This document shows positions 18,533-24,799 of a stretch of 64,000 nt of DNA, piece by piece. Where the stretch lies: positions 28,659-92,658 of IMG/VR virus record IMGVR_UViG_3300049043_000133. One strand, written 5' to 3'. Each line of letters opens with the position of its first letter. Position 1 is the first letter of the stretch. The notes under the pieces are model-generated. The model worked only from the letters and a program-made list of their open reading frames with translations, searched no databases and had not been told where the DNA came from. Source of the stretch: a virus. Made by a program: the position numbers and the translations under genes.

Positions 18533-21398
18533 ATGACTGCTACAATTGCTTCACGCCGTTCTGGCGCTTCATCCACTTGGGAATCATTCTGCCAGTGGGT
18601 GACTTCAACGAACAACCGCCTTTATGTTGGTTGGTTCGGAACTCTGATGATTCCTACACTGCTCGCTGCAACTGTATGTTTCATCGTTGCCTTCATTGCC
18701 GCACCTACCGGTCGACATTGACGGTATTCGTGAACCCGTTGCTGGTTCACTCATGTACGGAAACAACATCATCTCTGGTGCTGTAGTTCCTTCATCTAAC
18801 GCTATCGGACTTCACTTCTATCCCATCTGGGAAGCAAACTCACTTGATGAATGGCTGTACAACGGTGGTCCTTTCCAACTGGTTGTGTTCCACTTCCTCA
18901 TCGGCATCTATGCTTATATGGGTCGTGAGTGGGAACTTGTCCTATCGCCTGGGTATGCGTCCTTGGATTATGTGTTGCATATTCCGCACCCGTTGCTGCT
19001 GCATCTGCTGTATTCCTGGTCTATCCTTTCGGTCAAGGTTCTTTCTCTGATGCGATGCCTTTGGGTATCTCTGGTACTTTCAACTACATAAACTAAACCA
19101 ATGTGTAGTATAAATCGGGTGAACTGCTGGAAACCTAAATCGTATTGACTAACTTTTAACTTTATGCTATTATAAATATTAATAGATATATAAAGTTAAA
19201 TGTCTAAAAGACTTACTATTGATGATTTAAAAAGTATTGCTGAAAATAGAAACCACAAAGTAGTTTGTATGGACGGTTATACTGATATTAAAAGTAAAGT
19301 CTGGTTCTTTTGTAATACTTGTAGTGAATATTTCTATACAAGTGTTGCTTCTTATAAAAACGCAAAGAAAACTGGTTGTCCTCATTGTAGGAAAATCACT
19401 ATCTCCAAAACTCAAAAAGGAAAGGATGTTAGTGATGAAACCAGAAAACTTCTATCTCTAAAAGCACAAGGTCGTAAAGGTTCTCTTAAAGGTAAGTTTG
19501 GTAAAAACCATCCTGCTTATAAAGGAACACCAAATAGAGATTTTAATAACCCCTCAACAGATTATTATATTTGGAGAGAGGCAGTAAAACAGAGGTTTAA
19601 TAGAACTTGTGTTGTTACTGGTAAAAAATCTAACCTTGTTACTCATCATTTAGATGGTTGGAATGCATATCCTCAAAGAAGATATGATATTACAAACGGC
19701 GTTCTTATTCACAAAGAAGTTCATAAACTATTCCACGACCTTTATGGATATGGAAACAACACAGAAGAACAGTTTAATCTCTTTATTAAAGAACAATACG
19801 ACAAGGCAATCAGCATCCAAGCCGCAGACGCTTCTGTGGAAGGTTCAGAGACTACTGGGTGAACCAAGCGTGGTTCGTAATACCAGATTAGCGCCCGACA
19901 CTAATAGAAAATCTGTTGGTGATGATATAGTCCAATCCTTATGGAAACATAAGTTCTCCGTTCTGCTTAATAGGTTGGTTTTCCAAGCAGAGCACAACAT
20001 CCTGATGCACCCCTTTCATATGTTAGGCGTCGCAGGTGTGTTCGGTGGAAGTCTATTTTCCGCTATGCATAGGGAACTGTGCCCTTGCTGAGTAATCAGT
20101 AAGTGAAAATCGGGTGAATTGCTGGAACCCTAAGTCACTAAAATGTTACTTGACTTGTATAAATAACTCTGGTAACATAAACAGTATGACTAACCAGTAC
20201 TTATCTTTTATTGGGGAATGTAAAAACAAAACATATCCTCCCAACACATATCTTGAAGAACACCACATTGTTCCAAAACACGATGGTGGTTCTGATAATC
20301 AAGAAAATCTTATTTCATTATCTTTTGAAGATCACATACTCGCACATAAAATAAGGTACGATGTATTCGGTCAAGTTTATGACTTAGCAGCATATAACTT
20401 GATGAGTGGTTTTGATGATGAAGGTTGGAAACTTCTTAGAGTTGAAGGTGCTTATAAAACACACGAAGCACTAAGATTATCTAAGAAAAACTTTTGGAGT
20501 TCTGATTATCAAAAAGAAATGTCTGCTCGTTCTGTAAAGTCTGAGTATGCTATGAAAATGAGAAGTGTTGGTGGTAAAGTAGGAGGTAAAAATAGGAACA
20601 AAAATGTTGCTATTACTTCTACTGATAAGTATATTTTCTCTTATAATAAAGTTGAAACAGTTTGTATAATCAACTGTGAAACTGGTGGAGAAGTTTTAGA
20701 AGAACTACAAAAAATAGTTCCTAATCAAAACTTTAAGAGGGTAACACCTCTACTAAAAGGTCAAAGAGAAAATGCTTATGGTTGGTCTTGTATAAAGTTT
20801 AGTGATATGGTAATCAGCAGCCAAGTCCTAGATACATCTAGGAAAGGTTCAGAGACTACCTGAGGGGTATAGTCCCCTTAATAACAGGTTTAAGTGCCCG
20901 ACAACCTAATACAAATAGGTTGATGATATAGTCCACTCCTTATGAAAATAAGGAATAGAGGTGGGTTCCCTCGTAACCTCCTCACTCGTTCGTGAGACTA
21001 CTGAAAATGAATCACAAAACTACGGATATAAGTTTGGACAAGAAGAAGAAACCTACAATATTGTTGCCGCACACGGGTACTTTGGTCGTCTCATCTTCCA
21101 ATATGCTTCGTTTAACAATTCTCGTAGCCTGCATTTCTTCCTTGCTGCTTGGCCTGTCGTGGGTATTTGGTTTACCGCTCTTGGTGTTTCTACTATGGCG
21201 TTCAATCTCAACGGGTTCAACTTCAACCAGTCGCTGATTGATAGTCAGAACCGTGTTATCCCTACCTGGGCAGACATTCTTAACCGTGCTGGTCTGGGTA
21301 TGGAAGTGATGCACGAAAGAAACGCACATAATTTTCCTTTGGACCTTGCATCAGTTGAAGCAACCCCAGTTGCCTTGACTGCACCAACCATCGGGTGA
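18533..21398 (+). CDS. psbA: photosystem II D1 protein, three exons split by two group I introns
   Basis: Exons 18533-19089, 19974-20070 and 20964-21398. Joined, they give a D1 protein of about 360 residues: [34 protein letters not shown], the exon 1/2 joint [12 protein letters not shown], the exon 2/3 joint FSAMH-GSLVTSS, then [13 protein letters not shown] and the C-terminal TAPTIG. D1 binds the reaction-centre cofactors and turns over fast in light; phage copies replace the host protein during infection. Exon 1 carries three extra single bases, near 18709 (A), 18945 (G) and 18971 (A); with them removed the frame is D1 throughout, so they are probably sequence errors. Each exon ends in T and each intron in G, as group I splicing requires. 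Confidence 0.95.
19154..19202 (+). promoter_or_regulatory. late promoter inside a hairpin at the intron 1 endonuclease start
   Basis: The late box TATAAATA (19171-19178) lies in the loop of a perfect 10-bp inverted repeat, TTAACTTTAT (19156-19165) and ATAAAGTTAA (19190-19199). The 3' arm abuts the ATG at 19200; one more T-A pair includes its A. A transcript coming through from psbA can fold and hide the start, while a transcript starting at the late promoter would lack the 5' arm. Confidence 0.75.
19200..19862 (+). CDS. HNH homing endonuclease in psbA intron 1
   Basis: A 220-residue protein. The N-terminal part has a zinc-ribbon-like pair of cysteine pairs ([10 protein letters not shown] and GCPHCRK). 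A basic linker with [17 protein letters not shown] follows, then the HNH core: [20 protein letters not shown] near residue 140 and [18 protein letters not shown] near residue 166. It should cut intronless psbA and spread the intron. The last codons overlap the conserved ribozyme R element, so this end of the protein is constrained by RNA folding. Confidence 0.88.
20143..20188 (+). promoter_or_regulatory. late promoter inside a hairpin at the intron 2 endonuclease start
   Basis: TATAAATA (20158-20165) lies between ATGTTAC (20143-20149) and GTAACAT (20172-20178), a perfect 7-bp inverted repeat plus one T-G pair. The ATG is at 20186. Same layout as in intron 1. Confidence 0.7.
20186..20863 (+). 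CDS. HNH homing endonuclease in psbA intron 2
   Basis: About 225 residues from the ATG at 20186; the frame is open further up but the late promoter and hairpin point to this start. The HNH core is at the N-terminus: [17 protein letters not shown] then [18 protein letters not shown] glycine-rich basic linker and a C-terminal DNA-binding part with [19 protein letters not shown] follow. The domain order is the reverse of the intron 1 enzyme, so the two genes entered their introns separately. The C-terminus again overlaps the ribozyme core. Confidence 0.88.
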   Translation: MTNQYLSFIGECKNKTYPPNTYLEEHHIVPKHDGGSDNQENLISLSFEDHILAHKIRYDVFGQVYDLAAYNLMSGFDDEGWKLLRVEGAYKTHEALRLSKKNFWSSDYQKEMSARSVKSEYAMKMRSVGGKVGGKNRNKNVAITSTDKYIFSYNKVETVCIINCETGGEVLEELQKIVPNQNFKRVTPLLKGQRENAYGWSCIKFSDMVISSQVLDTSRKGSETT

Positions 21399-21420
21399 TA
21401 TAAAACCTAAAAAATAAATA

Positions 21421-21446
21421 AAGGAGTTCCACAAGAACTCCTTTTT
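21421..21446 (+). terminator. psbA rho-independent terminator
   Basis: AAGGAGTTC paired with GAACTCCTT around a five-base loop, followed by Ts, 22 bases after the psbA stop. Confidence 0.9.
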
Positions 21447-21517
21447 ATGCTCCTCATCCTCCTCTTCTTCCAACTCTTCGGACTTTTTCTTTTCATAATG
21501 TCCGTCACACAAGACTT

Positions 21518-21604
21518 ATGATATCATCAGAAACACCTCATAAGTTAGCAGAAATTATCAGAGATACTTGGACAACTTTACAGAAAACCACAGATACCTT
21601 ATAA
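21518..21604 (+). CDS. possible 28-residue leader peptide
   Basis: A short open frame starting MISSETPHKLAEIIRDTW and ending in TDTL. It has no strong ribosome site. The 170 bases between the psbA terminator and the gene at 21618 hold nothing else I can identify. Low confidence. Confidence 0.3.
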   Translation: MISSETPHKLAEIIRDTWTTLQKTTDTL

Positions 21605-21617
21605 TAAAGAGAAAAAG

Positions 21618-24520: not shown

Positions 24521-24549
24521 AGAGAGGGACTTGACTCCCTCTCTTTTTT
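24521..24549 (+). terminator. rho-independent terminator overlapping the next promoter
   Basis: AGAGAGGGA (24521-24529) paired with TCCCTCTCT (24536-24544), loop CTTGAC, and a T run. The loop contains part of the -35 box of the next promoter. Confidence 0.88.
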
Positions 24550-24558
24550 GTCTATAAT
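24531..24558 (+). promoter_or_regulatory. sigma70-type promoter embedded in a terminator
   Basis: TTGACT at 24531-24536 falls in the loop and stem of the terminator; after a 16-base spacer TATAAT lies at 24553-24558. It drives the gene at 24582. Confidence 0.75.
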
Positions 24559-24581
24559 TACCTTTGTTGAGGTTGATAAAA

Positions 24582-24740
24582 ATGGATAAAGAAAAACTTA
24601 AGCTTATTGTAAAAAATCTTGAATCTTTAGTGAACTGTTTAAAATCAGAAGTTTATTCTGATACTTCCTCATATAAGTATGAAGAAATTGCTCCATATAT
24701 AAATGATTACGACGAAGTATTTTATGAAGATGATGACTGA
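24582..24740 (+). CDS. small acidic hypothetical protein
   Basis: A 52-residue protein: MDKEKLKLIVKNLESLVNCL is a helix, followed by a very acidic end (YINDYDEVFYEDDD). Strongly negative small early proteins of phages often bind host factors or mimic DNA. That is only a possibility here. TTGAGG is a possible ribosome site. Confidence 0.6.
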   Translation: MDKEKLKLIVKNLESLVNCLKSEVYSDTSSYKYEEIAPYINDYDEVFYEDDD

Positions 24741-24749
24741 TATTACAAC

Positions 24750-24799
24750 TGGTATTTATTTGTATAAATAATTATATAGTTTAAATAAATACCAATATG
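24750..24799 (+). promoter_or_regulatory. late promoter inside a hairpin at the thyX-linked endonuclease start
   Basis: TATAAATA (24763-24770) lies in the loop of a perfect 11-bp inverted repeat, GGTATTTATTT (24751-24761) and AAATAAATACC (24783-24793), three bases before the ATG at 24797. Same layout as in both psbA introns. Confidence 0.75.

What the first reader, a model, noticed from the sequence alone, without database searches (positions are those of the whole stretch)
19154..24799. Three homing endonuclease genes share one switch: a late promoter inside a hairpin that masks the start codon
At 19154-19202, 20143-20188 and 24750-24799, the phage late box TATAAATA lies in the loop of a perfect inverted repeat (10, 7 and 11 bp), and the 3' arm lies 0-8 bases before the endonuclease ATG. 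The repeats differ in sequence, so the layout was kept while the bases changed. In a long early transcript (for example from the psbA promoter) the hairpin would hide the start. A transcript from the late promoter would begin in the loop, lack the 5' arm and be translated. T4 I-TevI in the td intron is controlled in this way (established). Finding it three times, in two psbA introns and beside thyX, suggests a general rule for cyanophage endonucleases that lets psbA be spliced and used before its endonucleases appear.
Basis: partly seen in the sequence, partly recalled or inferred. Interest (0 to 1): 0.9.

Follow-up and report, generated by a model that had tools for sequence, protein, structure and literature searches.

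The report
Hairpin-locked late starts of cyanophage endonucleases
In this cyanobacterial virus three selfish DNA-cutting genes, two of them inside the photosynthesis gene psbA, carry an RNA hairpin that should keep them silent until a late promoter inside the hairpin fires; the trick is known from phage T4, and here it proves common across many cyanophage endonuclease families.

Summary
At 19155-19200, 20143-20178 and 24750-24794 perfect inverted repeats (11, 7 and 12 bp, loops 21-24 nt) enclose TATAAATA and end at or just before the start of three HNH endonuclease genes; none of the other five TATAAATA in the window has such a repeat. Two genes lie in psbA group I introns and their 3' ends run into the intron core; the third lies before thyX. 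The layout is the T4 I-TevI/II/III, segB and Aeh1 mobE lock (PMC2988022), but without a Shine-Dalgarno sequence, so the start region itself is masked. I surveyed 2.83 Mb of related cyanophage DNA: a stem straddling the predicted late start occurs at 37 of 58 endonuclease late promoters, against 7 of 57 other late genes (p = 7e-9). It spans HNH, GIY-YIG, LAGLIDADG and Endo VII-like families. So the 'general rule' is supported as a strong tendency, not a law. Late timing and translational block remain unmeasured. In passing, a second, long-range design (terminator plus late promoter inside an 8-15 bp stem) showed overwhelming base-pair covariation and no Rfam match where tested.

The parts
18349..18377 (+). 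sigma70-type promoter of psbA (TTGACA-17-TATGAT); a GATAAATA late-type box overlaps at 18375-18382
   Evidence: 11 of 12 consensus matches; sequence
18397..18495 (+). PhotoRC-II RNA motif in the psbA leader
   Evidence: Rfam RF01717, 72 bits
19092..19974 (+). group I intron 1 in psbA (ends approximate), carrying endonuclease 1
   Evidence: Rfam RF00028 at 19712-19954, 46.5 bits (gathering 50); flanking D1 reading frames
19155..19165 (+). 5' arm of stem 1 (TTTAACTTTAT)
19171..19178 (+). late promoter box 1, TATAAATA; predicted start of transcription about 19184
   Evidence: T4 geometry from general knowledge
19190..19200 (+). 3' arm of stem 1 (ATAAAGTTAAA), ends on the A of the start codon
   Evidence: two compensatory double changes in L016
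19200..19862 (+). endonuclease 1, 220 aa, HNH type; last codons lie in the R element of the intron core
   Evidence: phrog_1271 E 5e-12; weak HNH_2; R element
20090..20964 (+). group I intron 2 in psbA (ends approximate), carrying endonuclease 2
   Evidence: Rfam RF00028 at 20744-20954, 50.7 bits
20143..20149 (+). 5' arm of stem 2 (ATGTTAC)
   Evidence: unchanged in relatives
20158..20165 (+). late promoter box 2, TATAAATA; predicted start about 20171
20172..20178 (+). 3' arm of stem 2 (GTAACAT), ends 7 nt before the start codon
20186..20863 (+). endonuclease 2, 225 aa, HNH homing endonuclease; last codons in the R element
   Evidence: PF01844 E 1.6e-5; phrog_655 E 2e-17
24750..24761 (+). 5' arm of stem 3 (TGGTATTTATTT)
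24763..24770 (+). late promoter box 3, TATAAATA; predicted start about 24776
24783..24794 (+). 3' arm of stem 3 (AAATAAATACCA), ends 2 nt before the start codon
   Evidence: kept in relatives, in one type with a G-U pair and a mismatch
24797..25231 (+). endonuclease 3, HNH/Endo VII-like, free-standing before thyX; 144 aa here against 171 aa in relatives, frameshifted near its end
   Evidence: phrog_3118 and phrog_3322

Best explanation
Each of the three endonuclease genes carries a T4-type translational lock. RNA that reads in from upstream (psbA for genes 1 and 2, an upstream early promoter for gene 3) contains both arms, folds, and hides the start region, so the gene is not translated and ribosomes stay out of the intron core. 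Late in infection RNA polymerase with the phage late sigma factor starts at the TATAAATA in the loop; these transcripts begin about 15-21 nt before the ATG, lack the 5' arm, leave the start open and are translated. Shown: anatomy, enrichment at endonucleases, compensatory change, and predicted opening of the start. Inferred: transcription starts, timing, repression, and the benefit to psbA splicing.
For: Perfect stems around the only late boxes that precede endonucleases. Read-through versus late folds open the start region at all three and at six of seven cases tested elsewhere. Relative L016 (62% identical endonuclease) has a 16-18 bp stem at the same place with two double compensatory changes; slid controls give none. 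Survey: 37/58 endonuclease late promoters against 7/57 other late genes, p = 7e-9; gp32/PhoH-anchored contigs only 8/19 vs 2/32, p = 0.003; isolate S-SRM01 only 10/11 vs 3/13, p = 0.001. The energy measure recovers T4 I-TevII (-14.0), I-TevIII (-12.7) and gene e (-15.2), other T4 genes -9 or weaker. Same mechanism established for T4 and Aeh1 endonucleases (PMC2988022, PMC3014915). Intron ORFs overlap the catalytic core.
Against: No transcript or translation data. Endonuclease 1 has an overlapping sigma70-like promoter. Stem 2 is short and shows no covariation of its own. 21 of 58 surveyed endonucleases show no stem. The LAGLIDADG case does not gain openness in the late form. No Shine-Dalgarno sequence is present, unlike T4, so 'masking' means the start codon region only. 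The three boxes were found by sequence alone.
Confidence: 0.78

Rival explanations
1. The repeats are DNA operators: the endonuclease (or another dimeric protein) binds both arms and represses the late promoter, as I-TevI binds an operator over its own late promoter.
For: T4 I-TevI, II and III have proven or putative operator sites that overlap their promoters (PMC2988022). Symmetric arms could be half-sites.
Against: Spacing of the arms varies from 15 to 35 nt in the short design; arms differ completely among loci while the 3' arm stays tied to the start codon or the predicted transcription start. G-U pairs are tolerated: L042 in the short design and 33 loci of the long design, which suits RNA rather than DNA symmetry.
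Confidence: 0.1
2. The stems are chance AT-rich repeats around an AT-rich promoter.
For: The region is AT-rich; stem 2 alone is not beyond chance by helix length. The gp4 genes show how coding sequence can mimic such a stem.
Against: Shuffled controls, slid-pair controls and non-endonuclease late genes all fall far below.
Confidence: 0.05
3. The promoters are overlapping early and late (middle-type) promoters, so the endonucleases are also made early and the stem only tunes their level.
For: Endonuclease 1 has TTGACT-17-TATTAT over the late box; cyanomyoviruses lack MotA and may use overlapping early and late promoters (PMC2984593).
Against: Such overlap is not enriched in the survey (10 of 12 consensus matches in only 2 of 58 endonucleases).
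Confidence: 0.12

Closest known systems
T4 I-TevI, I-TevII, I-TevIII hairpin/late-promoter lock (PMC2988022)
   Same: Homing endonuclease in a group I intron, late promoter within the stem region, stem hides the start on long transcripts, ORF end overlaps the intron core.
   Different: Cyanophage, psbA introns, HNH enzymes, no Shine-Dalgarno; function not measured here.
T4 segB and Aeh1 mobE (free-standing) locks (PMC2988022)
   Same: Free-standing endonuclease with late promoter and hairpin; matches endonuclease 3 before thyX.
   Different: Different endonuclease family and neighbouring gene.
T4 gene e (lysozyme) leader (PMC3014915)
   Same: TATAAATA in the 5' strand or loop of a stem that blocks translation from early transcripts.
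   Different: Not an endonuclease; Shine-Dalgarno sequestered.
psbA-intron endonucleases of S-SRM01 and S-CBWM1 (PMC8557907)
   Same: Group I introns with endonuclease ORFs in psbA. S-SRM01 has a stem and late box at the same place.
   Different: S-CBWM1 has no TATAAATA within 80 nt upstream of its intron ORF. The passages found in the paper do not describe the lock.

Membership tests
T4-type late-promoter/hairpin lock of homing endonucleases | gene encodes a homing endonuclease | tested here: met
   HNH and homing-endonuclease profiles; activity untested
T4-type late-promoter/hairpin lock of homing endonucleases | T4-like late promoter between the arms | tested here: met
   TATAAATA in each loop; promoter activity untested
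T4-type late-promoter/hairpin lock of homing endonucleases | 3' arm covers the translation start region | tested here: met
   ends 0, 7 and 2 nt from the ATG; start region paired in long form
T4-type late-promoter/hairpin lock of homing endonucleases | a Shine-Dalgarno sequence is sequestered | tested here: not met
   no GGAG-like sequence in the 20 nt before any of the three ATGs (read by eye); masking is of the start codon region
T4-type late-promoter/hairpin lock of homing endonucleases | late transcript lacks the 5' arm | not testable with these tools
   follows from box position if starts are at box +6; no 5' end data
T4-type late-promoter/hairpin lock of homing endonucleases | early transcripts read through and are not translated | not testable with these tools
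   psbA early-type promoter present; no expression data
Group I intron-encoded endonuclease (genes 1 and 2) | ORF lies within a group I intron | tested here: met
   Rfam RF00028, 50.7 bits for intron 2 (above gathering 50) and 46.5 bits for intron 1 (just below)

The most novel reading that the evidence does not exclude
Cyanomyovirus homing endonucleases as a class are locked by RNA structure. Besides the T4-like short hairpin there is a second, apparently unrecognised structured RNA element: a long stem (8-15 bp, 37 distinct arm sequences) that encloses an intrinsic terminator and the late promoter, with its 3' arm starting at the predicted transcription start, and with a short 5' segment that can pair either just before the terminator or near the start codon. 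It would couple termination, translational masking and late promoter use in one element that travels with GIY-YIG and other endonucleases.
Probability: 0.6. Interest if true: 0.75.

Novelty: new member of a known kind. Interest (0 to 1): 0.6.

Why it matters
It extends the T4 I-TevI paradigm to cyanophages and to introns in psbA, a gene that matters for photosynthesis during infection, and suggests that keeping endonucleases silent while introns splice is selected repeatedly and independently in several nuclease families. It gives a concrete, testable link between intron splicing, psbA output and late transcription, and a second covarying RNA element to study in culturable phages such as S-SRM01.

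Tried and rejected
Head-closure gene gp4 at first seemed to share the layout; its GCCAT...ATGGC pairing appears to come from divergent genes that both start ATGGC, it is not kept, and 0 of 29 pass the helix test. Overlap with sigma70 promoters as a general feature: not enriched. TATAAATA enrichment as such: none. A MAFFT alignment of the first 18 long-design loci misaligned the arms; replaced by an arm-anchored set selected by promoter core sequence. Rfam gave no match to the long design in L058, L075 or L078. Literature searches in the held library found no description of the lock in cyanophages; subscription journals are mostly absent.

Full report
Observation. The window contains eight TATAAATA, about as many as chance gives. 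Three lie in the loop of a perfect inverted repeat with a loop under 25 nt, and these three are the ones that precede HNH endonuclease genes. Arms are 11, 7 and 12 bp. The 3' arms end 0, 7 and 2 nt from the ATG.

Surroundings. Genes 1 and 2 lie in two group I introns of psbA (Rfam RF00028, 46.5 and 50.7 bits). The last codons of both ORFs are the GGTTCAGAGACTAC element, i.e. the R strand of the intron core, so a ribosome translating the ORF would enter the core. psbA has a near-consensus sigma70-type promoter at 18349-18377 that overlaps a GATAAATA late-type box, and a PhotoRC-II motif. Gene 3 is free-standing, downstream of a near-consensus promoter at 24531-24558 and before thyX.

Relatives. 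Close relatives of the three genes keep the stems. The most informative is L016, whose endonuclease is 62% identical to gene 1: the stem is longer (16-18 bp) and two pairs changed on both sides, with no such pairs in slid controls. In the gene 3 family one type has a G-U pair and one mismatch. S-SRM01, an isolate from a Singapore reservoir, carries a remote relative of gene 2 (31% identity) in psbA with an unrelated stem in the same place; its annotated start lies 21 nt upstream of the start that fits the alignment and the stem.

Folding. Read-through RNA hides the start region and the late form opens it: mean unpaired fraction from -12 to +6 rises from 0.16 to 0.46, 0.37 to 0.58 and 0.21 to 0.59. 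Similar shifts hold for six of seven other cases. As a positive control, the energy that ties the part before the predicted start to the part after it is -14.0 for I-TevII, -12.7 for I-TevIII and -15.2 for gene e of T4; other T4 genes examined were -9 or weaker. I-TevI and segB could not be scored because they lack an exact TATAAAT box within 90 nt.

Survey. I collected 2.83 Mb of cyanomyovirus DNA: contigs fetched by gp32 and PhoH, contigs fetched by the three endonucleases, larger records and S-SRM01. All genes with TATAAATA 10-50 nt before a start codon were clustered and one representative per cluster classed with PHROGs or Pfam. After removing near-duplicates there were 58 endonuclease, 57 other, 29 gp4 and 4 ambiguous late genes. 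A perfect stem across the predicted start, matched by no more than 1% of shuffles of the upstream 85 nt, occurs in 26 of 58 endonucleases and 2 of 57 others (p = 8e-8). One of those two, L068:452, encodes a protein with a stretch that looks like a nuclease-associated module (my reading, not tested by profile). With the energy criterion added and the helix threshold at 5%: 37/58 against 7/57 (p = 7e-9); in gp32/PhoH-anchored contigs alone 8/19 against 2/32 (p = 0.003); in S-SRM01 alone 10/11 against 3/13 (p = 0.001). The stems occur upstream of HNH, GIY-YIG, LAGLIDADG and Endo VII-like enzymes, and one weaker candidate precedes a PD-(D/E)XK enzyme. Endonucleases that lack a stem include the Endo VII-like genes just behind psbA, where a terminator ends at the box.

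Second design. Many GIY-YIG genes have TATAAATA directly after an intrinsic terminator, and an outer stem encloses both. To avoid circular selection I searched viral contigs with the promoter core CCTTTTCTTGTATAAATA alone. Of 72 distinct loci, 58 have a perfect outer stem of at least 8 bp, and 68 if G-U is allowed; exchanging 5' parts between loci with unrelated arms gives 56 of 585. Across 35 sequences all seven counted stem pairs changed on both sides, covariation score 0.60 against 0.04-0.11 for slid partners; these rows were chosen to have the stem, so the swap control is the fairer test. In nearly all, the 3' arm starts 3-5 nt after the box, at the predicted start of transcription. The 5' flank of the stem (for example ACCTG or GCTTAA) is complementary both to a segment just before the terminator (CAGGT, TTAAGC) and to the segment after the 3' arm, which suggests alternative pairing or a pseudoknot; this was read by eye and not tested. 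This design is not in the window.

Mechanism and rivals. The best explanation is the T4-type lock. A DNA operator is less likely because arm spacing varies, the 3' arm is tied to the start codon or transcription start, and G-U pairs are tolerated. An overlapping early promoter is possible for gene 1 (TTGACT-17-TATTAT) but is not general.

What is known. The mechanism is established or proposed for I-TevI, I-TevII, I-TevIII, T4 segB and Aeh1 mobE, and loss of the I-TevI hairpin impairs td splicing (PMC2988022, PMC3014915). Endonuclease-bearing psbA introns are known in S-CBWM1 and S-SRM01 (PMC8557907), and NATAAATA is the cyanophage late promoter (PMC2984593). I found no report of the lock in cyanophages in the held library. 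The three cases are therefore new members of a known kind; the breadth of the rule and the second design go beyond what I found described.

Caveats. No expression data were available. Cluster labels rest on one representative each. Predicted transcription starts assume T4 geometry. In this assembly psbA has single-base insertions near 18706, 18938 and 18968 not seen in relatives, and gene 3 is truncated relative to its 171-aa relatives, so sequencing error or decay affects parts of the locus.

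Noticed in passing
L058:799-897, L075:3654-3755, L078:4280-4379, L203:8837-8938 and about 65 loci among L245-L324: A second lock design before GIY-YIG and other endonucleases: terminator plus late box inside a covarying 8-15 bp stem whose 3' arm begins at the predicted transcription start; no Rfam match where tested.
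   Followed up: partly
window 18700-18975: psbA exon 1 is broken by three single-base insertions that relatives lack (about 18706, 18938, 18968): sequencing or assembly error, or a decayed psbA.
   Followed up: partly
window 25215-25235: Endonuclease 3 loses its last 30 residues, including CCITCN, through indels relative to L044.
   Followed up: partly
window 24296-24352: Glutamine riboswitch aptamer (RF01739, above gathering score), also seen in related contigs L058 and L075.
   Followed up: no
window 18375-18382: GATAAATA late-type box overlaps the early-type promoter of psbA, so psbA may be transcribed both early and late.
   Followed up: no
L055:3971-3992 (S-SRM01, MW015081): Annotated start of the psbA-intron endonuclease is probably 21 nt too far upstream; the next in-frame ATG fits the alignment and the stem.
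   Followed up: partly
S-SRM01 MW015081 62515-63273: ORF annotated 'translation initiation factor 2' reads as a GIY-YIG protein (MVNPNRFYTYAYLREDRTPYYIGKG...) with the second lock design upstream.
   Followed up: no
gp4 genes, e.g. L096:7772 minus strand: Late promoter of the head-closure gene sits between GCCAT and ATGGC, apparently divergent start codons of two genes; it mimics a start-masking stem.
   Followed up: partly
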